In this document: in pieces, positions 17,591 through 31,918 of the stretch
Numbering within the stretch: position 1 is the first letter of the stretch
Layout of the letters: each line of letters begins with the position of its first letter
Source of the DNA: Propionigenium maris DSM 9537
GTDB taxonomy: Bacteria > Fusobacteriota > Fusobacteriia > Fusobacteriales > Fusobacteriaceae
DNA: 64,000 nucleotides
Assembly (NCBI RefSeq): GCF_027925155.1
Contig: NZ_BSDY01000016.1
Span: 1 to 64,000 of the forward strand
Reading direction: 5' to 3'
Made by a program: the position numbers and the translations under genes
Notes under the pieces: generated by a model
What the model saw: only the letters and a program-made list of their open reading frames with translations
Told to the model about the DNA's origin: nothing
The model's database searches: none

Positions 17591-19294
17591 TCAAAGCTGC
17601 ATAACACTCCCCATAAGTGCTTCCATCTCTCTCTGAGATTTCTCCACCTGCTCTTCCAGCCTGTCACAAAGCTCCATAAGCTTGTCTACCCTCTGGACGA
17701 TCCTCTTCTGTTCTGCTAGAGGAGGTAAAGGTATTGTCAATTGATTTATAATACCTAAATTAATATTTTTTTGTGCTGTTGCAGGCGCAAAACTCTCAAT
17801 ATTTTTTTGAGTTAATTGAAAGAATAACTTAACGTACTTAGGAGTATACTCGTCGCTTAAAGATATAAAACCTACAACACTATCAGGGAAACAGGCGTCA
17901 ATACCCAGAAATCCTACCTCAGCTATATTAGCAGCTATTGTTATACAAAAAGTCCCTTTTTTCCAAAGCCGACTCTGCTCTAATCCAAATTCATTATAAG
18001 TTTTTGAATAATTCTCTATAACGTAGCCGTTAGATTTTGATCTAGCAACATCACCTGTTTGCACAAATGGGTAAGTTCCATTTGTAAATAACTTCTCGTC
18101 ATTTCTAGGTCTATGCTTAGATTTTCCTCTTTCAAATAGTCCAACATTACCTAACCTTGCCCATTCCCAGCTCTCAGGAAGGTCAAATGGCTTCTCCTCC
18201 TCAGAGATGGAAGCAAGCTTCTTAGACCTCTTTATCTTCTTCTCAGCAACTAGCCTTGCTTTCTCCTCCTCTATCCTCTCCAACAGCACACTGGCAGGCT
18301 CATCTGAGCTGTCCTGTGGTACCAGTTTTCCCTTCACTGCCATGGAAAGCACCAGGTCTCTGATATCCTTAATATCCTCCTTCCTCTTCACCACGATATC
18401 GAAGTTCTGGAAGATTAGCTCCAGGTTCTTGAGGAGTTCCTTATCATCAGATGACTTCTCAATCTCAGCCATGATAGATCTCTTAAGGCCTTCTCTTGTT
18501 TTTTCTCTTGTTTGTATCTCATCTCTGAGGTTATCTATGATGCCTTTTAGAGAGTCTATCCTTTCCACTATTCTATTTTGTTCAGATAGAGGAGGTAGAG
18601 GAAGTATTAAATTCTGTAATTTCCCTAAATATATCCCTAACTGAGCAGTTCCTTTTGCATTAGCTATCATTTGAGAGTTAAACATATTAGAGGTAAATAA
18701 ATAACTTAAAAAATATGGATTGTTTAACGTCTGTATTACAGCAACACTTCTTTGTAAAGTAAATTTCTCTTGAATCTTACCTACTACAGCTGATCTTCCT
18801 ATGCTTCCAACAATATTTAATAATATATCCCCTGATTGTATTTGTGTCCTTTTATCTTCTTTTTCAAACTCTTCCTCTGATATTAACCTACAGCTTTCAT
18901 CAAAATCTATATAATGCTCTTTTATGTTCTTAGCACTTAACATTTTGAAACCTTCATCTTTTTTTCTAGGAGGGTTATGTGAGCCATCAGTTAGTTTATT
19001 AGTTATCTTCCCTAGTCTTACCCACTCCCAAGAGTCTGGAATGTTGAAGGGAATCTCTTCCTCAGATATGGGTTCTAGCTTCTTACTCTTCTTTATCTTT
19101 TTTTCAGCTATGAGTCTAGCCTTCTCCTCTTCTATTCTCTCAAGAAGTACACTTGCTGACTCATCTGATTCGTCTTGAGGTACTAACTTCCCTCTTACAG
19201 CCAGATCTAGGATTATCTCCTCTAACTTCTTTAGGTTTTCTTCACTGTCAAATAGCATATTAAAATTATCTAGTATAAAATCCATCTTACTCAC
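17591..19294 (-). CDS. hsdS: Type I restriction-modification specificity subunit HsdS
   Basis: A 567-residue HsdS with two target recognition domains. Each half begins with a similar conserved block: residues about 37-92 (LVPQDESDE, LLERIEEEKARL, SWEWVRLG) and again near 310-367 (LVPQDSSDE, LLERIEEEKARL, SWEWARLG). Each TRD ends with a PLPPL(S/A)EQ(N/K)RIV(E/Q)R turn into a coiled-coil spacer. The symmetrical halves recognise a bipartite target. Its start overlaps the hsdM stop by 8 bases. The repeated blocks are similar in protein but diverged in DNA, so recent recombination between them is not evident. Confidence 0.93.
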   Translation of the reverse strand: MSKMDFILDNFNMLFDSEENLKKLEEIILDLAVRGKLVPQDESDESASVLLERIEEEKARLIAEKKIKKSKKLEPISEEEIPFNIPDSWEWVRLGKITNKLTDGSHNPPRKKDEGFKMLSAKNIKEHYIDFDESCRLISEEEFEKEDKRTQIQSGDILLNIVGSIGRSAVVGKIQEKFTLQRSVAVIQTLNNPYFLSYLFTSNMFNSQMIANAKGTAQLGIYLGKLQNLILPLPPLSEQNRIVERIDSLKGIIDNLRDEIQTREKTREGLKRSIMAEIEKSSDDKELLKNLELIFQNFDIVVKRKEDIKDIRDLVLSMAVKGKLVPQDSSDEPASVLLERIEEEKARLVAEKKIKRSKKLASISEEEKPFDLPESWEWARLGNVGLFERGKSKHRPRNDEKLFTNGTYPFVQTGDVARSKSNGYVIENYSKTYNEFGLEQSRLWKKGTFCITIAANIAEVGFLGIDACFPDSVVGFISLSDEYTPKYVKLFFQLTQKNIESFAPATAQKNINLGIINQLTIPLPPLAEQKRIVQRVDKLMELCDRLEEQVEKSQREMEALMGSVMQL

Positions 19295-20726
19295 CCTTTA
19301 ATGCCATCTCCAGCTCAGATTTCAGCATCTCCTTTAACTTTTTTATCTCATCTCTTGTAGCATTGTACCTCTCCAGTACCTCTTGTGGGTCTCCGTATAC
19401 AACCTCTTCTTTTGTAGGATTCTTGAAGTCCAGGTTATAGTTCTTAGCTGCTATATCTTCAGCACTTACCTTCCATGCATACTCGCTTCCCTTTCTCTCA
19501 TTCCACCATTCCTTCTCCAGGTCAAACTCAGAGAGCTTTATAGGCTTGGTCTTGGTATAGTTCTTGTATCCCTTAGGAAGTGGATGCTCAAAGAACCATA
19601 CATCCTTGGTAGGAGTTCCCTTATCAAAGAATAGCAGGTTTGTGTTGATTCCTGTGTATGGAGCAAATACACCGTTAGGCATTCTTACTATTGTATGTAA
19701 ATTAAACTCTTCCAGAAGCTTCTTCTTGATATTGGTCTTTACTCCCTCACCAAATAAAAATCCATCTGGAAGTACTACTCCTGCTCTTCCTCTGTCCTTG
19801 AGTTGATACATTATCCTTGTCATGAAAAGATCAGCAGTTTCACTAGTCATAAAATCATTAGGAAAGTTCTTTTTTATCCCCTCTTCCTCACTTCCACCAA
19901 AGGGAGGGTTCATAGCGATTATATCCATCTTCTCACTTGCAGGGATCTCTCTTACCTTTACTGCAAGTCCGTTATCATGACGGACATTTGGTGTATCCAC
20001 ATCGTGGAGGATCATATTAGTTAAACATAACATATGGGGCATAGGTTTCTTCTCGATCCCATAGATAGATCTTCCCAAAATCTCCATATCTCCTGTATTT
20101 TCTTTCTTTCGCATTTTTTTCATATGATTTAATGCACTTACAAGAAATCCTCCTGTACCGCAAGCAAAGTCTCCTACTTTATCACCTATTCTTGGATCTA
20201 GTCTATCTATAATGAAGTCTGTAACAGCTCTTGGGGTATAATACTCTCCTGCATTACCTGCACTCTGGAGATCTTTTAGGATGCTCTCATATATATCATT
20301 GAAGGCGTGCCTTTCCTCATAGTCATCCAACTCTATTTCATTTATCTTATTTAGAAGCTGCCTAAGAAGGGTTCCTGACTTCATGTAGTTATGAGAGTCT
20401 TCAAAGAAATCCTTAATTAGTGCCTTTCTAGGATCAGTATCTGCAGAGACCTCTAAGTTCTTTAGGTCTTTAAACATGCTCTCTACAAATTCAAGAAGTT
20501 CTTCTCCGGTGATGCCTTCATCATTAGCAGCCCAATTTCTCCATTGGTATTTCTTAGGAATGATAGCTTTATAGTCATCTTCTAACTCCCACTCTTCCTC
20601 CTTTACATCAAACATCTTAAGAAACAGGACCCATACAAGCTGTTCTATCCTCTGAGCATCTCCGTTTATCCCTGCATCCATCCTCATTATATCCTGTGTA
20701 CCCTTTACAAAATTTGTTAATGACAT
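19287..20726 (-). CDS. hsdM: Type I restriction-modification methyltransferase subunit HsdM
   Basis: A 479-residue N6-adenine methyltransferase subunit. It shows the N-terminal helical HsdM domain, the SAM motif (VGDFACGTGGFLVSAL, near residue 185), the catalytic NPPFGG (near 275) and the C-terminal region that binds HsdS. With HsdS it methylates the host target; with HsdR it forms the restriction complex. The order on the minus strand is hsdR, an 88-codon ORF, hsdM, hsdS, so one transcript is likely. Confidence 0.95.
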   Translation of the reverse strand: MSLTNFVKGTQDIMRMDAGINGDAQRIEQLVWVLFLKMFDVKEEEWELEDDYKAIIPKKYQWRNWAANDEGITGEELLEFVESMFKDLKNLEVSADTDPRKALIKDFFEDSHNYMKSGTLLRQLLNKINEIELDDYEERHAFNDIYESILKDLQSAGNAGEYYTPRAVTDFIIDRLDPRIGDKVGDFACGTGGFLVSALNHMKKMRKKENTGDMEILGRSIYGIEKKPMPHMLCLTNMILHDVDTPNVRHDNGLAVKVREIPASEKMDIIAMNPPFGGSEEEGIKKNFPNDFMTSETADLFMTRIMYQLKDRGRAGVVLPDGFLFGEGVKTNIKKKLLEEFNLHTIVRMPNGVFAPYTGINTNLLFFDKGTPTKDVWFFEHPLPKGYKNYTKTKPIKLSEFDLEKEWWNERKGSEYAWKVSAEDIAAKNYNLDFKNPTKEEVVYGDPQEVLERYNATRDEIKKLKEMLKSELEMALKGE

Positions 20727-20745
20727 CTCTATCTCCTAATTACTC

Positions 20746-21012
20746 TTATTTTTTATATCTTATCTTATATATATCGTCAAAAATTTGATATGTTGTTCTG
20801 CCTTTTTCTATATTTACATCCAACTTATTGTATTCCACATACTCAATTAATATCGTTTTAATAGGAGTCTTAGACACTACTCCATTGACTAATACCTGCA
20901 TGGCATGCTTATTGTCCTCTCTTCTGATATAGATGACTACAATTTCCTCATCTACTTTATTTATAACTAAACTCTTCATCTCTTTGAAATCAAGCTTAAG
21001 TGTTTCCTTCAT
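20746..21012 (-). CDS. Small unknown protein within the hsd operon
   Basis: An 88-residue, lysine- and glutamate-rich protein encoded between hsdR and hsdM with 11 and 19 bases on either side, so it is cotranscribed. It has a mixed alpha/beta pattern (EEIVVIYIRRED, MQVLVNG, TILIEYVEY) and no known motif. GGGAGGCTG precedes its ATG. Its conserved place inside a restriction operon would suggest a regulatory or accessory role, but this is only positional inference. Confidence 0.55.
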   Translation of the reverse strand: MKETLKLDFKEMKSLVINKVDEEIVVIYIRREDNKHAMQVLVNGVVSKTPIKTILIEYVEYNKLDVNIEKGRTTYQIFDDIYKIRYKK

Positions 21013-21023
21013 TTTCAGCCTCC

Positions 21024-23363
21024 CTATTGTGCATAAATCTCTTGTTCTAATTCCCTTACTGCATTCAAGTATCCATCCTTGCCACCAAACATCTTTACAA
21101 CTTTTGCCGGAGATCCTCCTATTTTCTTAAATTCATCCAACTTAAGCACTTTGATGCCCTCTATCTGGGAGATCCCCTGGTTTGTATATTTAGTTAGAAG
21201 TGCTTCTAATACCTCTCTGGCCTTTCCCTCATACTTAGAGAAGTAATCCTTCTTTTTTACATTTTTAGCCCTCTCCCTTCTTGTAAGAGGCTTCCTGTCA
21301 AAGGCAAGGTGGCATATGAGATCAAACTCATCCATATCTCTTCCTATCTCCTCCTTGAGCTCATCAAAGAAAATTCCCTTCTCGTGAAGTTCAGCCAATA
21401 CTGCTTCCTTCTTCTGACTTCTATTCCAGATGCTCAGGAATTCATCTAAGGTTGCAAATTGCTTCTTGATATTCTTCTTAGAGTAATCTACCAGAGACTC
21501 TGTAATCAACTTTCCAGAGGCATCCAGGTACTGTACCCTCTCATTGATTAATTTTACCTCTACATCGTCCACATAGAACTTCTTAGGTGCACCTCCATAT
21601 TCACCTTCAGGTTCATCATCCTCATCGCCCTTACCCTTTGGAGGTTTCTCACCACTATAGCCACCAATACTTGTTGGATCAAAATCTTTATCTGGTATAG
21701 GCTCACCGTCAAAATCCGGATCCGAGAAGAGTCTGGTTACATCTCTGAAGTCCATTATAGTAAAGTATGACTTACCGTAGGCTTCGTCTACCCTAGTTCC
21801 CCTTCCTATGATCTGTTTAAACTCAGTCATGGAGTTTATATTACTATCTAATACTATAAGCTTACACGTCTTTGCATCTACCCCTGTAGTCATAAGTTTA
21901 GATGTAGTAGCTATTACTGGGTAGGCAGTTCCAGGATCAATGAAGTTATCTAACTGTGCCTTCCCCTCTGGGTTATCTCCAGTTATTCTCATTACATATT
22001 TAGGATTTTCTCTGACTAGGTCACTATTTTCATTTATAAGTGCTTGTCTCATCCTTTCAGCATGATCTATATCTATGCAGAATACTATGGTCTTACTGAA
22101 CCTGTCGGTAGCCTTTAGAAATTTTGTTACTTCCTTAGCTACAGTTTTAGTTCTCTCCTCCAGTACTAGACTCTTATCAAAGTCAGTTACATTATACTCA
22201 CGGTCGACTATCTCATTGCCGTATTTATCTACCTTTCCTCTTTCAGGTCTATATCCAACTAGATCCTTGTCTAACCCCTTTCTCATAACCTTATAGGGAG
22301 CTAGGAATCCATCCTCTATTCCTTCTTTTAGTGAGTAGGTATAGAGAGGTTCACCAAAGTAGTGAATATTGCTTACTTCATTGGTTTCTTTAGGAGTAGC
22401 TGTAAGGCCTATATGCGTAGCGCTGGAGAAGTAATTAAGGACCTCCCTCCAAGCACTATCCTCCTTGGCACTTCCTCTGTGACACTCATCTACAACTACT
22501 AGGTCAAAGAACTCTGGACTGTACTCCTTGAAGACCTGCTGCCACTCTTCTGTACCTGTCATAGATTGATAAAGTCCTAAATATATCTCGTGAGCCTTGC
22601 TGATATTTCTTCTATTAATCTTTATCATCTTGTCGTCAAAATCTCTGAAATCATTGGCCATAGTCTGGTCGATAAGTATGTTTCTGTCTGCAAGAAAGAG
22701 GATCCTCTTCTTTTCCCTAGCCTTCCAGAGCCTATGTATAATTTGGAAAGCTGTATAAGTCTTTCCCGTTCCAGTGGCCATTACTAGAAGTACTCTATCC
22801 TGTCCCTTGGATACAGCCTCTATAGTCCTGTTAATGGCTATTCTTTGATAATATCTAGGAGTTTTATTACCTAATTTAAAAAAGTAGTCCTGTTTAACTA
22901 TTCTTTCAGCTTCAGGTGTAATCCCTCTCCCAACACAGTATCTCCTCCATAGCTCCTCTGGTGACGGGAATTCATCTAAACCTAGCTCCACTTCTCTTCC
23001 AGTAAGTCTGTCGTGCTCTATGAACCCATCTCCATTACTGGAGTAGATAAATGGGATATCTAGCTTCTCAGCATGCTGAAGCCCCTCTGAGTAATCTATT
23101 CCCTGTTGCATTCCTGATCCCATAGAATGTTTATTGCTCTTGGCTTCCACTATTGCTAGTGGCATATTAGCCTTGTAGTAGAGCATGTAGTCCACCTTCT
23201 TTTTAACTCCTCTGGTAGCCCCCTTCTTGCTTACGATTATCCTACCATCGGTGAAGCTGTGCTCTCTCTTTATTTGGTTTTCGCTCCATCCCCTCTTTAA
23301 AATAGAAGGATCTATATACTTACTTCTTATATCTGTTTCACTTAATTCTTTCTTGTTAAACAT
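21024..23363 (-). CDS. hsdR: Type I restriction enzyme HsdR (EcoEI-like)
   Basis: A 779-residue motor/nuclease subunit. The N-terminal nuclease domain holds the PD-(D/E)xK-type core (VDYMLYYKANMPLAIVEAK, residues about 55-75). The SF2 translocase follows: Walker A MATGTGKTYTAF near residue 195, DECH (VVVDECHRGS) near 293, and TGVDAKTCKLIVLD and QIIGRGTRVDE (motif VI) near 500. The C-terminal acidic linker and helical region match the EcoEI_R_C type. The length fits EcoEI-like (type IB) enzymes. No disabling mutation is visible. Confidence 0.93.
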   Translation of the reverse strand: MFNKKELSETDIRSKYIDPSILKRGWSENQIKREHSFTDGRIIVSKKGATRGVKKKVDYMLYYKANMPLAIVEAKSNKHSMGSGMQQGIDYSEGLQHAEKLDIPFIYSSNGDGFIEHDRLTGREVELGLDEFPSPEELWRRYCVGRGITPEAERIVKQDYFFKLGNKTPRYYQRIAINRTIEAVSKGQDRVLLVMATGTGKTYTAFQIIHRLWKAREKKRILFLADRNILIDQTMANDFRDFDDKMIKINRRNISKAHEIYLGLYQSMTGTEEWQQVFKEYSPEFFDLVVVDECHRGSAKEDSAWREVLNYFSSATHIGLTATPKETNEVSNIHYFGEPLYTYSLKEGIEDGFLAPYKVMRKGLDKDLVGYRPERGKVDKYGNEIVDREYNVTDFDKSLVLEERTKTVAKEVTKFLKATDRFSKTIVFCIDIDHAERMRQALINENSDLVRENPKYVMRITGDNPEGKAQLDNFIDPGTAYPVIATTSKLMTTGVDAKTCKLIVLDSNINSMTEFKQIIGRGTRVDEAYGKSYFTIMDFRDVTRLFSDPDFDGEPIPDKDFDPTSIGGYSGEKPPKGKGDEDDEPEGEYGGAPKKFYVDDVEVKLINERVQYLDASGKLITESLVDYSKKNIKKQFATLDEFLSIWNRSQKKEAVLAELHEKGIFFDELKEEIGRDMDEFDLICHLAFDRKPLTRRERAKNVKKKDYFSKYEGKAREVLEALLTKYTNQGISQIEGIKVLKLDEFKKIGGSPAKVVKMFGGKDGYLNAVRELEQEIYAQ

Positions 23364-23392
23364 ACAACCACCCCGTAATTGATTTGAATGTG

Positions 23393-24217
23393 CTAATACT
23401 CTTTTTCTGAAACGGCTTTAACAATTCGACCTTCTATCGTCAGTTTCTTTACATCTTCATTCATAATATATCTATCTGGATACTTAGTATTGTTGAAGTT
23501 TTTTAATATGACCATACTTTTAGCTGGAGTAGCTATCTGAGTGATAAAGGTCTTTTCTTCATAAGTTACAAGGTATATCTTATTCTCTATGATTTCTTTT
23601 TCGTCAGGATCTACTATTATCCAATCCCCAGGATTAATCTCAGGGCTCATGGAGTCATTTAAAATCTCAATTATAAAAGAGTTTTTTAAAGCTTTATTCG
23701 TAAAGATCTCTTTAGTTCCGACTTGTTTACTTTTGTTTATATTTATTCCACCTGTTTTTGTTTCTTTATAAACAGGCAACTTAAGATTAATCATTCCGTG
23801 TATTTTTGTGATAGATTTTTTAGTTTCTATTTTATTTTTGCTATATGAATTGATTTTCTGTAGTAAATCATCATAATTGCATGTAAATAAATTAGAGAGC
23901 ATTTCTTTAAAAAGCTTTGTTTCAGTTTTTCCTTCAGCTATAAAAGTAATGATTTTTTTAGCATCAGAATTTTCTTTTCTTATACTTTCTGGAGTCCTTT
24001 TGTAATCCTCATACTTTTTTATATTTTTAATATCTTCATCAGAAATTTTTAAAACCTTGATGAGTTTATCACCAATTTCTTTCTTAGGGAAATTACGTCT
24101 TCCTTTTTCAATATCGTTTATATATCCGACACTTTTATTAACTTCTTCAGCTAATTTAGTTAAAGTATAGTCTTGCTTTTCACGATACTCTTTGATTATA
24201 TCACCTGTTTTTTTCAT
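23393..24217 (-). CDS. CI/LexA-like repressor (XRE HTH plus S24 peptidase domain)
   Basis: A 274-residue repressor. The HTH is at residues 9-65 (TLTKLAEEVNKSVGYINDIEKGRR). The C-terminal S24 domain shows NDSMSPEINPGDWIIVD (Ser nucleophile region, near residue 185) and KIYLVTYEEKTFITQI (Lys region). The family self-cleaves when RecA is activated, linking excision to DNA damage. It faces a small Cro-like gene across a control region containing repeated TTACGC sites. It is the likely switch of element 1. Transcription runs leftward towards the hsd operon. Confidence 0.88.
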   Translation of the reverse strand: MKKTGDIIKEYREKQDYTLTKLAEEVNKSVGYINDIEKGRRNFPKKEIGDKLIKVLKISDEDIKNIKKYEDYKRTPESIRKENSDAKKIITFIAEGKTETKLFKEMLSNLFTCNYDDLLQKINSYSKNKIETKKSITKIHGMINLKLPVYKETKTGGININKSKQVGTKEIFTNKALKNSFIIEILNDSMSPEINPGDWIIVDPDEKEIIENKIYLVTYEEKTFITQIATPAKSMVILKNFNNTKYPDRYIMNEDVKKLTIEGRIVKAVSEKEY

Positions 24218-24265
24218 TTGCAGAATCCCCCAATCCCCTTAAATTTACTAAGACTATTTTACATC

Positions 24266-24340
24266 TTACGCTAAATAAAAGCAAAATAAATTGACTTTTA
24301 GAAAAAAAACTTTGACTTTACGCAGAATAAATGGTAAAAA
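24266..24340. promoter_or_regulatory. Divergent promoters with TTACGC operator sites
   Basis: Leftward: TTGCTT (complement of 24279-24284), 17 bases, TAAAAT. Rightward: TTGACT (24312-24317), 17 bases, TAAAAA (24335-24340). In both, the spacer contains the same motif, TTACGC followed by AATAAA (24266 and 24318), so a repressor bound there would block both promoters. A palindromic copy lies at 24598-24616. Confidence 0.6.
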
Positions 24341-24380
24341 ATATGGTGTAGAGTTTTTTAAATAAGTCAGGAGGAATGTA

Positions 24381-24590
24381 GTGAGTGAGCATTATGAGGT
24401 AGCAAATAATATTAGGGCAGAAATCCGAAGGAGAGATATGACTTTAGAAGATGTAGCAAAAAAAATAGGTTTGTCTAGACAGAGTTATACAACTAGATTA
24501 AATCGTTTTGCCAGGGGTGAAGATGTTTTATTTAGTTTTCTCGAGAAAACAGCCATGGCTTTAGAGGTACCATTAACTATATTTTTTTAG
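24381..24590 (+). CDS. Cro-like small HTH regulator
   Basis: A 69-residue XRE-type helix-turn-helix protein; the HTH is visible as DMTLEDVAKKIGLSRQSY followed by TRLNRFARGED. It starts with GTG at 24381, with AGGAGG 7 bases upstream. It diverges from the S24 repressor, the usual place for Cro or for an activator of excision. The xis/int genes follow on the same strand, so it may control them. Confidence 0.75.
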   Translation: MSEHYEVANNIRAEIRRRDMTLEDVAKKIGLSRQSYTTRLNRFARGEDVLFSFLEKTAMALEVPLTIFF

Positions 24591-24597
24591 AAAAAAA

Positions 24598-24616
24598 TTA
24601 CGCTTTTTTAGCGTAA
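24598..24616. promoter_or_regulatory. Palindromic TTACGC operator copy
   Basis: TTACGCT (24598-24604) and AGCGTAA (24610-24616) with a 5-nt T spacer. It has the same core as the sites in the divergent promoter region, located before the xis/int pair. Confidence 0.55.
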
Positions 24617-24723
24617 AAAACAGGGTGGAGATTTTTTTAAGTTTTACCGATTTATAAAACATAAAAAAATAAATTATTAGAGTTTTATTATTAGAAAAAG
24701 AAACAAAAGAGAAGGGGATAGGA

Positions 24724-24909
24724 ATGAAACAGCTATTAAAAGTAGAAGATGTAATGGAGGTATGTCAGGTAAAGGTTGGAAAAGCATATCAGATAATGAA
24801 AGAAGTGAACAGAGATATGGAGAATGCAGGATACATTACTATAAGAGGAAGGGTAAATTCTAAGTTTCTTTGTAAAAAATTAGGAATAGATATAGAAAGG
24901 AAAAGGTAG
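24724..24909 (+). CDS. Excisionase-like small DNA-binding protein (element 1)
   Basis: A 61-residue protein with an N-terminal HTH (LLKVEDVMEVCQVKVGKAYQIMKE), a motif typical of small excisionase/AlpA-like regulators beside integrases. It is clearly related to the 66-residue product at 27309-27509, which sits beside the second integrase. The stop codon directly abuts the integrase ATG (TAG-ATG), so the pair is coupled. Confidence 0.7.
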   Translation: MKQLLKVEDVMEVCQVKVGKAYQIMKEVNRDMENAGYITIRGRVNSKFLCKKLGIDIERKR

Positions 24910-25998
24910 ATGCCGGTTTATAAAGATGGTAAAAAATGGAGAGTAGTTTACACTTACAAAGAAAGAGGGGTTGTAAAACAATCTCAGAAGAGAGGGTTTC
25001 TTACTAAAAGAGAAGCAAAACTTTGGGAAAGTGAGTATAAATTAAAAGGAAGTAGGTCAGTCAATATGACATTCGCCTCCTTCTATAAATTATATATGGC
25101 CGATGTAAAACCAAGAGTAGAAGATACTACCTATCATCTGAAAGAAATTATATTTCAAGGTAGTATTCTTCCTTACTTTAATAATATGAAGATGTCAAAA
25201 ATAACCCCGATTATTGTTAGAGATTTTCAAAACCGGCTCATCACAGGGGTCAATCCAAGGAATGGGAGACCATATAAGGCTCACTATATTCAGAAGATAA
25301 ATGCACAACTTTCAGCTCTTATGAATCATGCAGTGAATTTTTATGAATTGAGTGAGAATCCATGTAAGAAGGCAGGACCTTTAAAATTAAGGTATGAAAA
25401 GAAGGTAAAGTTTTGGACACTGGATGAATTCAATAGATTTGTGAAGGTGATAGAACATAAACCAATGAGCTATATAGGTTTTCACGTACTCTTTTGGACT
25501 GGTATTAGGACAGGCGAACTCTTAGCGCTTAGTTTGAAGGATATAGACTTAATTAATGGAACGATAAAAATAGACAAATCATATGCTAGGTTGAATGGAA
25601 AGGATATAATTAAATCAACTAAAAATGAAAGCAGTGAAAGAGTTATAAAAATGCCCAAGGATCTTGTAAAGTTGTTAAAGAAATATATTAGAGTGCTCTA
25701 TGGGATAAGTAGTGATGGCAGACTCTTTAATATGACAAGGGAAGTTTTTAAAAATGATCTCTCTAGGTATTGTCATAAGGCAGGTGTTAAAAAGGTTACA
25801 CCTCATGATTTAAGACATTCTCATGCAAGCCTGCTGATAAATGAGGGGGTGAACCCTTTGGCAATATCCAAAAGATTGGGGCATGCTAAGGTAGATATGA
25901 CGCTTAACACATACTCACATTTATATCAATCTACTGAGGATAAAATGGTGGACATTCTAGATGCTGCTTATGGCAAAGTTTTGGCAAAGAAAATATAA
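24910..25998 (+). CDS. int: Tyrosine integrase of element 1
   Basis: A 362-residue phage-type integrase. It has an N-terminal arm-binding domain (MPVYKDGKKWRV...KRGFLTKREA), a SAM-like core-binding domain (about 55-160) and a catalytic domain. Catalytic residues are Arg in TGIRTGELLAL (near 197), Lys in the STKNESSER hairpin, HDLRHSHAS (near 302), GHAKVD, and the nucleophile Tyr in LNTYSHLY (near 340). Its 3' end lies 92 bases from the right att core, which it is expected to recombine with the tRNA copy. It is about half identical by eye to the integrase of element 2. Confidence 0.92.
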   Translation: MPVYKDGKKWRVVYTYKERGVVKQSQKRGFLTKREAKLWESEYKLKGSRSVNMTFASFYKLYMADVKPRVEDTTYHLKEIIFQGSILPYFNNMKMSKITPIIVRDFQNRLITGVNPRNGRPYKAHYIQKINAQLSALMNHAVNFYELSENPCKKAGPLKLRYEKKVKFWTLDEFNRFVKVIEHKPMSYIGFHVLFWTGIRTGELLALSLKDIDLINGTIKIDKSYARLNGKDIIKSTKNESSERVIKMPKDLVKLLKKYIRVLYGISSDGRLFNMTREVFKNDLSRYCHKAGVKKVTPHDLRHSHASLLINEGVNPLAISKRLGHAKVDMTLNTYSHLYQSTEDKMVDILDAAYGKVLAKKI

Positions 25999-26089: not shown

Positions 26090-26138
26090 CATGGTAAGGT
26101 AGAGGTCGCCGGTTCGACTCCGGCAGGTGGCACCAGTA
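26090..26138 (+). repeat. Shared attachment core between elements 1 and 2
   Basis: An exact copy of 6630-6678: the 3' part of tRNA-Thr from the anticodon stem through CCA. There is no 5' half here, so this is not a working tRNA. It serves as attR of element 1 and, by position, attL of the prophage. Confidence 0.9.
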
Positions 26139-26150
26139 TTTATAATCATT

Positions 26151-26230: not shown

Positions 26231-27322
26231 TTAAACCTTGTTGCTTTCATTTATTATATCTATTATCTTTTCTTCTTTGGATGGATATAGGTGAGCATAG
26301 GTGTTAAGAGTAATATCCACCTTGGCATGTCCTAGCCGCTTAGAGATGATAAGTGGATTAACATCCTTATTGATAAGGAAGGATGCGTGGCTGTGTCTTA
26401 GATCATGTACCCTGATTTTTTTCACACCGGCTTTTTCATGGTATCTGGTGATATCATTTCTAAAAAGGTGTTGTGTGATAGAGAAGAGCCTTTCCTTCTC
26501 CTTTATCTTGTAGAGCATACCAATATATCTCTTTAAGATTACTGCTAAATGATCATCGATCAATATAGTCCTCTCACTTGACTGGGTCTTAGTGGTTCCT
26601 ATTACCTCTTCTCCTCCGACCAATTTACTATAGTTTCTCCTAATGTGTATTTTTCTATTTTGCAGATCCATATCTTCCCTAGTAAGTGCCAGTAGCTCAC
26701 CCACTCTCATACCTGTCCAAAAGAGGAGATTAAATCCTGTATAGCTTATTGGTTTATGTTTTATGACTTGAATAAACCTGTTGAATTCTTCCACACTCCA
26801 GATCTTGATCTCCTTTTTTTGCTCCTTAACATGCTGCCTGAGGCTCTCGACTTTTGTGAAGGGGTTAGAATTTAAGCCATAGTACCTTACTGCATAGTTG
26901 ATGAGTGATTTTAGCTGAGCGTTTATTTTCTGAAGATAAGCAAGTGTATAGCAACTTCCGGTCCTTGGGTTGGTTTGACTCATTAATTCATTCTGAAAGT
27001 TTCTGATCTTAAGCGGGGTGATATCTGTTAGCTTTATTTCTCCAAAGAAGGGAAGTATCTTAGTGGAGAAGATATATTTTTTAGTTTCCAGAGTTTTAGG
27101 TTTTATCCTCAAGGAAATATCTTTTAAGTACAGATCATAAAGAGTATTGACCTTCATATCGGTACTACCTTTAACTTTATAATGGAATTCCCTTTCATAT
27201 TTGAGAGCATCTTTTTTTGTTTTAAAGCCTCTCTTCTTTTTCTGGATATTCTTATCCAAGATCTCATCTTTGTAACGGAAGAGAAGGGTCCAGGTCCCAT
27301 TATCTTCCTTATATGCTGGCAT
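26231..27322 (-). CDS. int: Tyrosine integrase of the prophage
   Basis: A 363-residue integrase of the same subfamily as the one at 24910. The catalytic set is Arg in TGMRVGELLAL, Lys in the GTTKTQSSER hairpin, HDLRHSHAS, GHAKVD and Tyr in LNTYAHLY. The ATG at 27322 is chosen because it overlaps the end of the upstream small gene and begins the conserved MPAYK-type N-terminus; the longer frame to 27391 would run through that gene. Its 3' end is about 90 bases from the att core, mirroring element 1. Confidence 0.92.
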   Translation of the reverse strand: MPAYKEDNGTWTLLFRYKDEILDKNIQKKKRGFKTKKDALKYEREFHYKVKGSTDMKVNTLYDLYLKDISLRIKPKTLETKKYIFSTKILPFFGEIKLTDITPLKIRNFQNELMSQTNPRTGSCYTLAYLQKINAQLKSLINYAVRYYGLNSNPFTKVESLRQHVKEQKKEIKIWSVEEFNRFIQVIKHKPISYTGFNLLFWTGMRVGELLALTREDMDLQNRKIHIRRNYSKLVGGEEVIGTTKTQSSERTILIDDHLAVILKRYIGMLYKIKEKERLFSITQHLFRNDITRYHEKAGVKKIRVHDLRHSHASFLINKDVNPLIISKRLGHAKVDITLNTYAHLYPSKEEKIIDIINESNKV

Positions 27323-27509
27323 TGTCTCTCTCCAAGTAATCCTCTTTGAATCCAAACTTTTCAACCAGGTAGATCTTGTTGACCTTTCCACTTATGGTTA
27401 GGTATCCCTTGGATGCCATTTCTTTATTTATTTCTTTGATTACCTGATAAGCTCTAGCTCTTGATACACCTAGTAGCTTCTCCACTTCCTTAGCTCCATA
27501 CAATAACAT
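27309..27509 (-). CDS. Excisionase-like small DNA-binding protein (prophage)
   Basis: A 66-residue protein with an N-terminal HTH (KEVEKLLGVSRARAYQVIKE) and a short beta tail (GYLTISGKVNKIYL), closely similar to the product at 24724-24909. It overlaps the integrase start by 14 bases. Likely role: directing integrase towards excision, or regulating it. Confidence 0.72.
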   Translation of the reverse strand: MLLYGAKEVEKLLGVSRARAYQVIKEINKEMASKGYLTISGKVNKIYLVEKFGFKEDYLERDNASI

Positions 27510-27998: not shown

Positions 27999-28970
27999 CT
28001 ATACACAATATTTTTCTTCAATTTCATACCATTGAAGTCCCAGAGTGTCTTTATTCTCTTGCCACCATTCATATGCCCTGCTTCTCCACCAATCATCTTT
28101 AAGATCTATTTTAGTATGAGTCATGACACCTTTCCTCTTGTTTTTAATTTGTATTAAATGCTCCATCAGATTTTTATAAACTGGGTCTTCATTGAAATCT
28201 AACTTAAGGTTATTAACTTTAGATAGCTCCTCTACAACCTCTGCCCTCTGCTCCCTCAATCTTTTTAGCTTTCTTTCAGTTTCCAGCAGTTCGGTTATTT
28301 CTCTATCTATATCCTTCAGTTCCTTGGTAAGCTCCTTTACCCTCTCGCTCCTTCTGTCATCTTCAATGACAGCAGCCTTTAATGTCTTGCCGGGAGTGAT
28401 GATTTTTCTTTCATTTTTAATTTCTGTAGCTGTAGTTATCTCTCCGGAATAAAACTTACCTCTCACTTCTTTCGGAGACTTTTCAAGTTCTCCGATTATT
28501 CGTTGTGATGCCCCCTCCAGTTTTTTGCCTATCATCTCCGGATTGTCCACAGTGCGGACAATCTCAGCTTCTTCTATTTCTTCAGGTTCATTCACTAAGG
28601 AAGAAGTGGTTTTCTCTGGAGGATCTAGAAGGATACTTTCTTCTGTACCAGCATCAAGAAGAAATAAGTCATACTTTTTTATGAAGGTATAAACTTCCAT
28701 CTTCTTAAAACCTAATTCACTGTATCTCTTTTCAAACTCTCCACTTCCTTTTTTGGAATATCTCTCCTGTAACTCCTTTAATCTCCTCCCAATCTCTCTA
28801 AAGGAAAGGATAGTAGTTCCTCTTAGATGCTTAAGTTCATTCCAGAGGATGTTCTCATCACTGTCTGTTAGGTCCCTGGTCAAATATTTGATCTGTTTGG
28901 GGGTATGAACCAATGAAACTTTTAAAGCCTTAAAACCTTCTAAGTCACTATTAATATCCATTACTCCCAT
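27999..28970 (-). CDS. ParB-like partition partner (by position) with coiled coil
   Basis: A 323-residue protein. The N-terminal 110 residues (TKPKQIKYL-like TPKQIKYLTRDL, LSFREIGRRLKELQ, FKKMEVYTFIKKY) look like a helix-turn-helix DNA-binding region of the kind seen in phage DUF3102/ParB-like proteins. Residues about 205-270 form a coiled coil (ERVKELTKELKDIDREITELLETERKLK). The C-terminus has WWRSRAYEWW. It overlaps the parA stop by 10 bases, the usual arrangement of a ParA/ParB pair. No canonical ParB nuclease-fold motif is visible, so the name rests on position and HTH. Confidence 0.5.
   Translation of the reverse strand: MGVMDINSDLEGFKALKVSLVHTPKQIKYLTRDLTDSDENILWNELKHLRGTTILSFREIGRRLKELQERYSKKGSGEFEKRYSELGFKKMEVYTFIKKYDLFLLDAGTEESILLDPPEKTTSSLVNEPEEIEEAEIVRTVDNPEMIGKKLEGASQRIIGELEKSPKEVRGKFYSGEITTATEIKNERKIITPGKTLKAAVIEDDRRSERVKELTKELKDIDREITELLETERKLKRLREQRAEVVEELSKVNNLKLDFNEDPVYKNLMEHLIQIKNKRKGVMTHTKIDLKDDWWRSRAYEWWQENKDTLGLQWYEIEEKYCV
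28542..28562. repeat. Dispersed palindrome, copy 1
   Basis: ATTGTCCACAGTGC then GGACAAT: one mismatch from the 19-bp palindrome TTGTCCGCAGTGCGGACAA. It lies inside the parB-like gene. Related copies are at 45957 and 54244. Confidence 0.55.
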
Positions 28971-29665
28971 GTGATGATCACATCCATAATTTCGTCATAT
29001 ACAGCTTTTGATTCTAAAGTTTTCTTAGACCTAGAATCATAGATACTCTTACCTTTTAAACATAGCCGTCTTTCAAAAGCGGTATGTTTAATTGCTTTAG
29101 TGAGATACACATTGGTAGATTCAAAGAATTGATCAAGAGCATCATAGATATCTGTTTCATCTTTTGTTCCTAAGAAGAGGTTAGGAACTACACAGCTAAC
29201 CTTTTCTATATCTACAGTCTCCTGGAGTCTCTTAATTGCTTTAATAGATGCACCATCAAGCTGAACCGGGATGATGATTTGGTGTGTGACTTCTGCTGCA
29301 ATTTTAGAAAGCTGGTCTTCTTTGGATGGGGCTCCATCAACTACTACAATGTCATACTCCTTATCGAGTCTTTCAAAAGCTTTAATAACCTTTTTCCTCA
29401 ATCCTGTTCCTATGGAATTAGTTTCCAGAGGGTAATAGTCAAGGTCTTTTCTAATCCTGATTTCGATATCTTCTCCGTATTGAGAAAAGTATTTCAAACC
29501 TTTTTTGTCTGTAAATTCCTGCCCTAGAAGGATGAGAGAATCATTCTGAGAGTCACCACTAACCAAAGCAGTTCTAAACCCTTTAGTAGTAAGGCCATGG
29601 GCTAAGTTCCTTGAGATTGAAGACTTTCCTGTACCTCCCTTATTATTTTTCACATATATGATCAT
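28961..29665 (-). CDS. ParA-type partition ATPase
   Basis: A 234-residue ParA/MinD-family ATPase. The deviant Walker A is KNNKGGTGKSS (residues 5-15), with Walker A' DSQNDS and Walker B DIVVVDGAPS. The ATG at 29665 has AGGAGG upstream; an upstream in-frame Met at 29740 overlaps the previous gene's end and lacks a site. ParA systems segregate low-copy replicons, so its presence in a prophage suggests an extrachromosomal phase. It is coupled to the ParB-like gene by a 10-base overlap. Confidence 0.9.
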   Translation of the reverse strand: MIIYVKNNKGGTGKSSISRNLAHGLTTKGFRTALVSGDSQNDSLILLGQEFTDKKGLKYFSQYGEDIEIRIRKDLDYYPLETNSIGTGLRKKVIKAFERLDKEYDIVVVDGAPSKEDQLSKIAAEVTHQIIIPVQLDGASIKAIKRLQETVDIEKVSCVVPNLFLGTKDETDIYDALDQFFESTNVYLTKAIKHTAFERRLCLKGKSIYDSRSKKTLESKAVYDEIMDVIITWE

Positions 29666-29690
29666 AAACTTCCTCCTAATTTTTTTATTT

Positions 29691-29903
29691 TTAATAGGAC
29701 TGCTTTCTTTCGTAGAGGTCCAGGGTATCAAACTTATCATTGAAGAACTTATCCCTCATGGCTAAGATCTGCTCATCTGTAAAGTCCTCTGTAAGATCAT
29801 CATATTTACTGTCCCATACCTCTTTCATGGCCTGGTCAGCTACCCATCCCTGATCTATATAGCTCTTGCTTTCCTTTATTAATTCCTCTATAGTTCTCTT
29901 CAT
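29691..29903 (-). CDS. Small conserved protein (70 aa) shared with element 1
   Basis: AGGAGG precedes ATG 29903. The sequence GWVADQAMKEVWDSKYDDL and RDKFFND aligns with residues 22-75 of the 185-residue protein at 14906 in element 1. Acidic and helical. It lies between the Ogr-like gene and parA. Function unknown. Confidence 0.55.
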   Translation of the reverse strand: MKRTIEELIKESKSYIDQGWVADQAMKEVWDSKYDDLTEDFTDEQILAMRDKFFNDKFDTLDLYERKQSY

Positions 29904-30161: not shown

Positions 30162-30416
30162 TCACTGAAGGTTATAGTTCTTTCTTACGAGAGCAGCTGT
30201 CAGTCCCTTAATATCTTTAATCTCACGGTTAAAGGAGTATAGGTCCCTGAGGGCTGCTTTTACATTTTCCTCCCTGTATTTGTGGGAGAAGATCCTGAGG
30301 TATTCCAGATACTCCCATGTTCCCCTCTTGAGCCTGGACACGGCTTTGGATACATAGATATTCTTTCTTGCTCTGTTTAGAGCCTTTTCCAGATCTTTGT
30401 TATAGCTACTGCACAT
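30162..30416 (-). CDS. Hypothetical basic helical protein (84 aa)
   Basis: The ATG at 30416 has GGGAGG 5-10 bases upstream inside the end of the repA gene, with an 11-base overlap; a GTG two codons earlier is less well spaced. The product is basic and helical (RARKNIYVSKAVSRLKRG, KYREENVKAALRDLYSF). It is coupled to the replication initiator, which suggests a role in replication or copy control. No family recognised. Confidence 0.5.
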   Translation of the reverse strand: MCSSYNKDLEKALNRARKNIYVSKAVSRLKRGTWEYLEYLRIFSHKYREENVKAALRDLYSFNREIKDIKGLTAALVRKNYNLQ

Positions 30417-31461
30417 AGACACCTCCCTTGGCTAGATATTCGTTAAACTTTCTGCAGAGGATGTTTCCCAGTTGATCATCTACTCCAGTGCATTCAAAAC
30501 CAATTTCACTTAATACTAAGCCCCTCAACCTTCTCACTTCAGTTTCTCCTAACTTAGATGCCATAAACTCTATTTTTTCATCTCGTCTGATCTCCTTTGG
30601 GGTTATGCTTCCAGAGTTTTTATAGTCTCCATCCCTTAAGATGGCCACAAGGATACCTGGAGTCATGCTCTTATTCTTGAGTTTCATAAAAGCTATGGCT
30701 CTTTCTACCTCTTTGATGTCACCATTGGTTAGGGTAGTGATATTTTTTAGGGTATTGGAGTTGGTGTTTTTTACAGCTGACTCCAGGAGGAGGTTCTTCA
30801 GGTTTTTAGTAAAGTCATCTTCAGGGGCAGCAGTATGATTTTCCTTCCTCTCTGCTACTACTCTTTTATTATCTCTAATAGGTAATACTCTAATAGGGTC
30901 GAAACTTTCGACCACCTCCAAGTCGAAACTTTCGACTGGTTTATCAGAAACTTTCGACGGGTCGATATTATCGACTTCGAGGATTTTAGGAGTCTGAATT
31001 TCATCTTTTATCCTGCTTTCCACCTCCATAACGATATCCTCTTCAGGTCTATCTTTTACTTTTCCCAGGTAAAAAGTATCTGCTTTATGTTGCTCCTTTA
31101 TTATTTTTAACAACCCTACTGTTTCTAATTGTTTTTTACATTTGATAATAGTGTCTCTGGATTTATTCAGCATCTCTGCTAAGGTAGTAACAGAGAGCTT
31201 GATATAGACCTTTTTATCTTTATCAAACCATCCATTCTGAAGAGAGTAATTCAAGTACCGGCACATAACACCGTATACAATTTTAGATGTATCTGATAGC
31301 AGTTCCTCGGTAGTATTAATTTCCTTGGGAACCATTAAACTCTTTTCTTTGACTTTTTTGATTTTTTTGACCCTTTTCTGGTAGTGTTTATTGTTAAATA
31401 GTTTTTCTGGAATAGGGTAAAACCCCTGATTGGCTATATCTCCAACTGTGAAATATTCCAT
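30406..31461 (-). CDS. RepA_N-family replication initiator
   Basis: A 351-residue initiator. The N-terminal winged-helix domain matches RepA_N plasmid initiators: GFYPIPEKLFNNKHY (residues 14-28), KIVYGVMCRYLNYSLQNGW, KVYIKLSVTTLAEMLNKS and KQLETVGLLKI. A hydrophilic linker follows (about 140-215), whose DNA contains repeated palindromes (VESFD is encoded twice). The C-terminal domain resembles DnaD-like or other conserved C-termini. RepA_N proteins initiate theta replication of low-copy plasmids, with the origin inside their own gene. Found next to ParA, it points to autonomous replication. AAGGAG lies upstream. Confidence 0.75.
   Translation of the reverse strand: MEYFTVGDIANQGFYPIPEKLFNNKHYQKRVKKIKKVKEKSLMVPKEINTTEELLSDTSKIVYGVMCRYLNYSLQNGWFDKDKKVYIKLSVTTLAEMLNKSRDTIIKCKKQLETVGLLKIIKEQHKADTFYLGKVKDRPEEDIVMEVESRIKDEIQTPKILEVDNIDPSKVSDKPVESFDLEVVESFDPIRVLPIRDNKRVVAERKENHTAAPEDDFTKNLKNLLLESAVKNTNSNTLKNITTLTNGDIKEVERAIAFMKLKNKSMTPGILVAILRDGDYKNSGSITPKEIRRDEKIEFMASKLGETEVRRLRGLVLSEIGFECTGVDDQLGNILCRKFNEYLAKGGVYVQ
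30898..30975. repeat. Iteron-like palindromes inside repA (candidate replication origin)
   Basis: GTCGAAACTTTCGAC occurs at 30898-30912 and 30922-30936. A variant ending GAAACTTTCGAC lies at 30947-30958, and GTCGATATTATCGAC at 30961-30975. Each full unit is a 15-bp palindrome. Spacing is 24, 22 and 17 bases. They fall in the part of repA coding for the interdomain linker, where RepA_N plasmids are known to carry their origin. Confidence 0.7.
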
Positions 31462-31462
31462 G

Positions 31463-31918
31463 CTACTTCTCCTTTTTTCTCTTTTTCTTATTCAGGTTCT
31501 CTCGGATCATCTGCATATCTATCTTTGAACTCTCATTCTGGGTCCTTTCCAGGGAGGTGGCCAGGTATTCCATGAGCCACTCCCTCAGCTTGTCGTCCAA
31601 TTCTTCATAGTGCAGCTCCAACTCATGAAGGGATTTCTTCTTGTCTGTGTATTTTTTCTTAAAGTCTGATATCTCATCCTTGGTTTTCTTTACTAGGTTC
31701 CAGTTTTCCAACTCTATGGCTTTGTCCAGAAGTCTCGTGAAGTAGATAAGCATATCTTCGGTATGCTTATCGAAACCAAAGGATTTAACTCTTCTATCAT
31801 CATCTGATTTATCTATAACACCTCCATATCTCATGTAATCCTGTATAGTCATGATCCTGACTTGAAGATTCATTCTTTGTTCCAGTTCTAAGGACAAGTA
31901 ACACTCAGGTCTACTCAT
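31463..31918 (-). CDS. Hypothetical coiled-coil protein (151 aa)
   Basis: GGGGGGAAG precedes ATG 31918, and the gene ends 1 base before the repA start. The protein is charged and mostly helical with a long coiled coil (DEISDFKKKYTDKKKSLHELELHYEEL) and a very basic end (NKKKRKKEK). It could be an accessory DNA-binding or replication factor. No family recognised. Confidence 0.5.
   Translation of the reverse strand: MSRPECYLSLELEQRMNLQVRIMTIQDYMRYGGVIDKSDDDRRVKSFGFDKHTEDMLIYFTRLLDKAIELENWNLVKKTKDEISDFKKKYTDKKKSLHELELHYEELDDKLREWLMEYLATSLERTQNESSKIDMQMIRENLNKKKRKKEK

What the first reader, a model, noticed from the sequence alone, without database searches (positions are those of the whole stretch)
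30898..30975. Iteron-like 15-bp palindromes inside the repA gene
GTCGAAACTTTCGAC occurs twice exactly and twice in variants within 78 bases, in the linker-coding part of repA. RepA_N plasmid origins are known to lie inside rep. The palindromic units are good candidates for initiator binding.
Basis: partly seen in the sequence, partly recalled or inferred. Interest (0 to 1): 0.65.

Follow-up and report, generated by a model that had tools for sequence, protein, structure and literature searches.

The report
Replication-start repeats inside prophage repA gene
Four short palindrome-like DNA repeats inside a replication gene of an integrated bacterial virus are almost certainly the docking sites where that gene's own protein starts DNA copying, an arrangement known from staphylococcal plasmids but here found in viruses and mobile elements of Fusobacteria.

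Summary
In detail: GTCGAAACTTTCGAC occurs at 30898 and 30922, with variants at 30944 and 30961, inside a minus-strand RepA_N gene (30406-31461). Every strict GTCGA-N5-TCGAC site in the 4.1-Mb genome (11 sites) lies in the linker of one of four rep genes. The intact arrays share the same spacing (strict sites at +0, +39, +63; an imperfect copy at +17). The sites are a DNA signal, not a protein repeat. Synonymous recoding almost never yields them, the imperfect copy sits in another reading frame, and one relative changed both outer bases together (CTCGA..TCGAG), altering two residues. The sites track the N-terminal DNA-binding domain: 11 of 11 reps with this domain type carry them, against 1 of 17 with other domain types, although most of those share the C-terminal domain. 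The exception is a chimera with remnant sites. This matches pSK41-type RepA_N origins, where four Rep boxes lie inside rep. The most likely mechanism is that RepA binds the boxes, opens the adjacent AT-rich stretch and recruits the primosome. The host element is an integrated ~41.7-kb contractile-tailed prophage, not a resident plasmid. Binding and replication remain untested. New member of a known kind, in Fusobacteriaceae.

The parts
30898..30912 (-). Rep box 4 (nearest the C-terminal domain in the repA sense direction), GTCGAAASTTTCGAC
   Evidence: exact copy; conserved position in C1, C12, UBA2433, G053 and L045 reps
30922..30936 (-). Rep box 3, GTCGAAASTTTCGAC
   Evidence: exact copy, 24 bp from box 4 in all intact arrays
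30944..30958 (-). Rep box 2, imperfect unit (sense GTCGAAAGTTTCTGA), different reading frame
   Evidence: position and sequence conserved in C1, C12, UBA2433 and G053; degenerate in L045
30961..30975 (-). Rep box 1, GTCGATAATATCGAC in sense
   Evidence: strict GTCGAN5TCGAC
30838..30897 (-). AT-rich stretch (68% AT) next to box 4, candidate unwinding region; holds CTCTAATAGG twice (30873, 30888)
   Evidence: the homologous stretch is 68-85% AT in relatives while the boxes are 50-56% AT
30406..31461 (-). repA, RepA_N initiator, 351 aa: N-terminal winged-helix domain, disordered linker (138-214), helical C-terminal domain
31463..31918 (-). conserved all-helical 151-aa partner gene found upstream of most of these rep genes
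30162..30422 (-). small gene overlapping the 3' end of repA; a relative in L021 lies in the same place
   Evidence: no convincing family match
28961..29740 (-). ParA-like ATPase
   Evidence: phrog_164 1.5e-27, Pfam AAA_31
27999..28970 (-). gene overlapping parA, candidate partner of ParA, phrog_1733 (unknown function)
26231..27391 (-). tyrosine integrase of the prophage
   Evidence: Pfam Phage_integrase 1e-22; next to the left attachment repeat
26091..26145 (+). left attachment repeat, 55 bp; the right copy is at contig C16 67799-67853, outside the window

Best explanation
The four repeats are initiator-binding boxes (Rep boxes or iterons) that form the replication origin of the prophage and lie inside its repA gene. 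The N-terminal winged-helix domain of RepA binds the two GTCGA half-sites of each box as a dimer, and several boxes gather RepA into one complex (inferred from pSK41). The adjacent AT-rich stretch opens, and the C-terminal domain brings in host replication proteins such as the primase (inferred from pSK41). This would start theta replication of the excised, circular prophage. The linker that these bases also encode is a disordered spacer whose protein sequence matters little, so the DNA is free to carry the boxes. Shown here: the boxes, their selection at DNA level, their fixed spacing, their linkage to the N-terminal domain type and their absence elsewhere in the genome. Not shown: binding, opening and replication.
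For: All 11 strict sites of the genome are in four rep genes. Strict sites sit at +0, +39, +63 in the window, C1, C12, UBA2433, G053 and L045. Codon null: three sites in 1 of 20,000 synonymous recodings for the window gene, 0 of 20,000 for C1, C12, UBA2433 and G053. In UBA2433 both outer bases are exchanged (CTCGA..TCGAG in two boxes), changing V to L and D to E. Boxes in 11 of 11 reps with this N-terminal type and 1 of 17 with others, Fisher 5.6e-7. L045 keeps the array with an unrelated C-terminal domain; L101 has a 73% identical C-terminal domain, another N-terminal domain and other repeats. RepA_N Pfam match; PDB RepA and Rep-DNA structures by sequence and fold. Linker modelled as disordered. 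AT-rich stretch beside the boxes. pSK41 precedent.
Against: No binding or replication data. No DnaA-box-like sequence within 1.2 kb (nearest 29646). The cumulative GC-skew minimum (about 31.6 kb) lies near the boxes but also at the switch in gene direction, so it is not independent. Box number varies: L061 has lost all but one, and L110 has one. The reps compared are not phylogenetically independent (L059/L108, L045/L061 and C1/C12 are near relatives), so the Fisher value overstates the support.
Confidence: 0.88

Rival explanations
1. The boxes are a partition centromere (parS-like) bound by a partner of the ParA encoded nearby.
For: A ParA-like gene and an overlapping partner gene lie 1-3 kb away in the same direction; palindromic arrays are typical of centromeres (general knowledge).
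Against: No ParA-like protein was recognised among the ORFs read around the boxes in the C1, C12 and C45 elements (ORF list; ten of those proteins scanned). The boxes follow the Rep N-terminal domain and are missing from reps with other N-terminal domains.
Confidence: 0.05
2. The boxes are an operator: RepA binds inside its own gene to limit its expression, without serving as origin.
For: Autoregulation by initiators is common in plasmids (general knowledge); the position would allow a roadblock about 490-560 bases into the gene.
Against: No box lies at the promoter side of repA or of its upstream partner. The array with adjacent AT-rich DNA is origin-like, and the closest studied relative uses its boxes as origin. 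A double role is possible.
Confidence: 0.04
3. The repeats reflect a repeated peptide (VENVD-like) needed in the linker, or an RNA structure in the repA message.
For: The three strict boxes share one reading frame and encode V-E/D-N/S-x-D; the region folds as RNA better than shuffles in four of five reps tested (z -4.1 for the window; -4.1, -3.2, -2.7 and -1.1 for relatives).
Against: Codon choice is far from expectation; box 2 is in another frame; residues change while the palindrome is kept (UBA2433); the predicted RNA pairing differs between relatives (box 3 with 4 in the window, box 1 with 3 in most relatives) and is weak in L111; the linker is modelled as disordered.
Confidence: 0.02

Closest known systems
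pSK41 rep of staphylococcal RepA_N plasmids (PMC5703833)
   Same: RepA_N domain at the N-terminus; four Rep boxes in the middle of rep; boxes overlap the coding sequence of a linker; C-terminal domain conserved within related hosts
   Different: Box sequence (GTCGA-N5-TCGAC, with GC-richer arms); host phylum Fusobacteriota; carried by an integrated tailed prophage and small integrative elements; identity about 25-31% over the matched part of staphylococcal RepA_N
pPR9 chimeric initiator (HTH_36 N-terminal domain on a pSK41 C-terminal domain; PMC5703833)
   Same: Same kind of swap of N-terminal domain plus origin; the C45 rep joins an HTH_36 domain to a C1-type C-terminal domain
   Different: C45 keeps two boxes of the replaced origin as apparent remnants
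PLE RepA_N and its iterons, satellite of phage ICP1 in Vibrio cholerae (PMC7145576, PMC8263062)
   Same: RepA_N initiator on a phage-related element; semi-palindromic iterons; RepA_N domain and origin exchanged together while the C-terminal domain stays
   Different: PLE iterons are about 30 bp and lie in a noncoding region; here the boxes are inside repA and the window element is a full prophage

Membership tests
RepA_N initiators (PF06970) | RepA_N domain over the curated cut-off | tested here: met
   55.1 bits against a cut-off of 30, residues 54-112
RepA_N initiators (PF06970) | N-terminal winged-helix fold of solved RepA proteins | tested here: met
   4pql, 5kbj (Rep-DNA complex), 4pt7 and 4pta by sequence at about 1e-12 to 4e-11 and as top fold matches; model confidence moderate
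pSK41-type origin inside rep | several Rep boxes in the central, linker-coding part of rep | tested here: met
   four boxes at codons 163-188; linker 138-214 with pLDDT below 50
pSK41-type origin inside rep | N-terminal domain binds the boxes | not testable with these tools
   indirect only: boxes track the N-terminal domain type, 11 of 11 against 1 of 17
pSK41-type origin inside rep | linker protein sequence dispensable | not testable with these tools
   consistent: disordered and divergent; L061 lacks 21 residues between box 1 and box 4
pSK41-type origin inside rep | C-terminal domain conserved among related hosts and separable from the N-terminal domain | tested here: met
   C-terminal domain 38-73% identical in 14 Fusobacteriaceae reps with other N-terminal domains; unrelated in L045 and others with the same N-terminal domain
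pSK41-type origin inside rep | C-terminal domain binds DnaG primase | not testable with these tools
   none
RepA_N plasmid | resident, autonomously replicating plasmid | tested here: not met
   element lies in a chromosomal contig between 55-bp attachment repeats and carries terminase, portal, capsid, tail sheath and tape measure; replication after excision not testable here
ParB/parS centromere | present together with parA/parB-type genes | tested here: inconclusive
   a ParA-like gene is present in the window, UBA2433, G053 and L045, but no ParA-like protein was recognised near the boxes in C1, C12 and C45

The most novel reading that the evidence does not exclude
One origin code is shared by a full prophage and by smaller integrative elements (C1, C12, remnants in C45) in the same genome. 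[quoted passage not shown] The prophage RepA may therefore also fire, or compete for, the origins of these elements, so that they behave as satellites or incompatibility rivals that communicate through shared boxes. Swapping of the N-terminal domain with its boxes would be the escape route, with residue 102 of the recognition helix (R or K with mostly G..C outer bases, L or V where the outer bases differ) setting the outer-base specificity.
Probability: 0.15. Interest if true: 0.6.

Novelty: new member of a known kind. Interest (0 to 1): 0.42.

Why it matters
It predicts a compact (78-bp boxes plus about 60 bp AT-rich DNA) origin for Fusobacteriaceae, where I know of few defined replicons, and gives a natural set of domain swaps (same boxes with different C-terminal domains, same C-terminal domain with different boxes) for testing how RepA_N proteins recognise DNA. 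It also extends origin-inside-rep and module swapping from staphylococcal plasmids and the cholera satellite PLE to tailed prophages of another phylum.

Tried and rejected
Repeated peptide: rejected by the codon null and the out-of-frame copy. Conserved RNA structure: predicted pairing differs between relatives; no Rfam match. GC skew: minimum near 31.6 kb but confounded by gene direction. DnaA boxes: none within 1.2 kb. More relatives: viral scans with A2 and A3 returned the same four loci; genome contigs gave one, UBA2433. The 2-mismatch site on contig C9 is taken as chance. Weaver 2009 and Schumacher 2014 were not held; their content is taken from the review PMC5703833.

Full report
OBSERVATION. 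The finding is correct in sequence and position. Two exact copies of GTCGAAACTTTCGAC (30898, 30922) and two variants with three mismatches (30944, 30961) fill 78 bp. The window holds 9 strand-matches with up to 3 mismatches against 0.75 expected from shuffles. The gene is on the minus strand (30406-31461, 351 aa) and is a genuine RepA_N protein (Pfam PF06970, 7e-15).

GENOME-WIDE COUNT. The strict form GTCGA-N5-TCGAC occurs 11 times in the 4.1-Mb genome, and all 11 sites lie in four rep genes: the window (3), contig C1 (3), C12 (3) and C45 (2) (genes read). The same pattern read backwards has 38 hits per strand, so the specificity is not due to rarity of the composition. If sites were scattered at random, the chance of all 11 falling in these genes (0.1% of the genome) is negligible.

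ARCHITECTURE. In the sense of repA the strict boxes sit at +0, +39 and +63 in the window, C1 and C12, and in three relatives from other genomes: UBA2433, another Fusobacteriaceae genome (G053) and viral contig L045. An imperfect unit at +17 (TCGAAASTTTCNGA) is kept in five of these and degenerate in L045. The TCGA arms on either side are invariant in 26 strict boxes, while the central five bases vary; the invariance of the arms is built into the search pattern, so the informative positions are the outer pair and the centre.

DNA, NOT PROTEIN. Recoding the linkers with synonymous codons at local usage gives three TCGA-N5-TCGA sites in 1 of 20,000 trials for the window gene and in 0 of 20,000 for C1, C12, UBA2433 and G053. 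The +17 unit is in a different reading frame. In UBA2433 the outer pair is changed on both sides in two boxes (G..C to C..G), which keeps the symmetry while changing valine to leucine and aspartate to glutamate. RNA folding of the segment is stronger than shuffles in four of five reps tested, as expected for repeated palindromes, but the pairing partners differ between relatives and one relative is not significant.

LINK TO THE DNA-BINDING DOMAIN. I collected 28 related initiators. Those whose N-terminal domain resembles the window's (alignment scores 312-774) all carry at least one box: 11 of 11. Of 17 with other N-terminal domains (scores 66 or less) only C45 does (Fisher 5.6e-7, not corrected for relatedness). 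Fourteen of the 17 share the window's C-terminal domain at 38-73% identity, so the boxes do not follow that domain. Conversely L045 keeps the full array with an unrelated C-terminal domain. C45 is itself informative: an HTH_36 N-terminal domain with its own inverted repeats is joined to a C1-type linker and C-terminal domain, and two of the four old boxes are lost, although downstream it is closer to C1 (90% nucleotide identity) than C12 is (83%), and C12 keeps all four. L061 has one box left after an apparent deletion between box 1 and box 4.

GENERALITY. Many other rep genes of the family carry different repeats at the same place just after the N-terminal domain, as expected if each N-terminal type has its own boxes; a minority (for example L104, L105) show none.

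STRUCTURE. By sequence the closest solved proteins are RepA N-terminal domains 4pql, 5kbj, 4pt7 and 4pta, and the AlphaFold model of the window protein finds the same structures, including a Rep-DNA complex. The model is of moderate quality (mean pLDDT 63) and treats residues 138-214, which the boxes overlap, as disordered.

CONTEXT. The element lies between 55-bp direct repeats at 26091-26145 and 67799-67853 of the contig (resembling a tRNA 3' end; ARAGORN found no intact tRNA in the right-hand stretch), giving a prophage of about 41.7 kb with integrase, repressor, type III restriction-like genes, terminase, portal, capsid, tail sheath and tape measure. RepA, the upstream helical partner, ParA and its neighbour are on the minus strand beside the integrase. 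The prophage is therefore integrated, and the origin would act after excision or infection.

MECHANISM (inferred steps marked). Boxes are selected at DNA level and tied to the N-terminal domain (shown). RepA binds each box through two GTCGA half-sites (inferred from symmetry and relatives). Bound RepA assembles on the four boxes and opens the adjacent AT-rich stretch, 68% AT here and up to 85% in relatives (composition shown, opening inferred). The C-terminal domain recruits host replication proteins, as shown for DnaG in pSK41 (PMC5703833) and inferred here.

PLACE AMONG KNOWN SYSTEMS. pSK41 rep has four Rep boxes within its coding region, bound by the N-terminal domain, and a dispensable linker (PMC5703833). 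pPR9 has an HTH_36 swap like C45. PLE shows joint exchange of RepA_N domain and origin (PMC8263062). This is a new member of that kind in Fusobacteriota. The literature searches showed no report on it, but most subscription papers are not held, so absence of a report is weak evidence.

OPEN IDEAS. Residue 102, the first of the predicted recognition helix, is R or K in nine reps whose boxes mostly have G..C outer bases (three of those reps have an odd outer base in one box), L in UBA2433 (C..G in two of three) and V in L110 (A..G). Two independent changes are only a lead.

Noticed in passing
L008 3451-4515 (contig C45): Natural chimera: HTH_36 N-terminal domain with its own GAGGGGGTTC inverted repeats fused to a C1-type linker and C-terminal domain, with old boxes 1 and 4 kept and 2 and 3 decayed.
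   Followed up: yes
window 31463-31918: Small all-helical protein (AlphaFold pLDDT 85) with no family match of note in Pfam or NCBIfam, found upstream of most of these rep genes whatever their N-terminal type, in 15 of 98 Fusobacteriota genomes.
   Followed up: partly
L061 2986-3924: Rep nearly identical to L045 in its N-terminal domain but with only one box left, apparently by deletion between box 1 and box 4.
   Followed up: partly
L101 2335-3300 (contig C1 about 239835-240800; same as L021): Rep with a C-terminal domain 73% identical to the window's but another N-terminal domain; its linker carries three copies of ACTGAAAAGTCG instead.
   Followed up: partly
window 30850-30897 and L006, L045, L108, L109: AAAACTACTACT follows the boxes in C1, C12, L045, L108 and L109; the opposite orientation (GAGTAGTAGCAGA) in the window, UBA2433 and G053. 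Might recall DnaA-trio repeats; not tested.
   Followed up: no
L006 2229-9648, L007 1045-7365, L008 521-6469: Elements with serine recombinase, RepA and a 365-aa conserved protein without any family match, no virion genes recognised in the stretches read; possible phage satellites.
   Followed up: partly
window 26091-26145 and contig C16 67799-67853: 55-bp direct repeat ending in a tRNA-like 3' end, the prophage attachment sites.
   Followed up: yes
window 17591-25998: A second integrase, an S24 repressor and type I restriction genes directly left of the prophage: a neighbouring integrative element with a related integrase.
   Followed up: no
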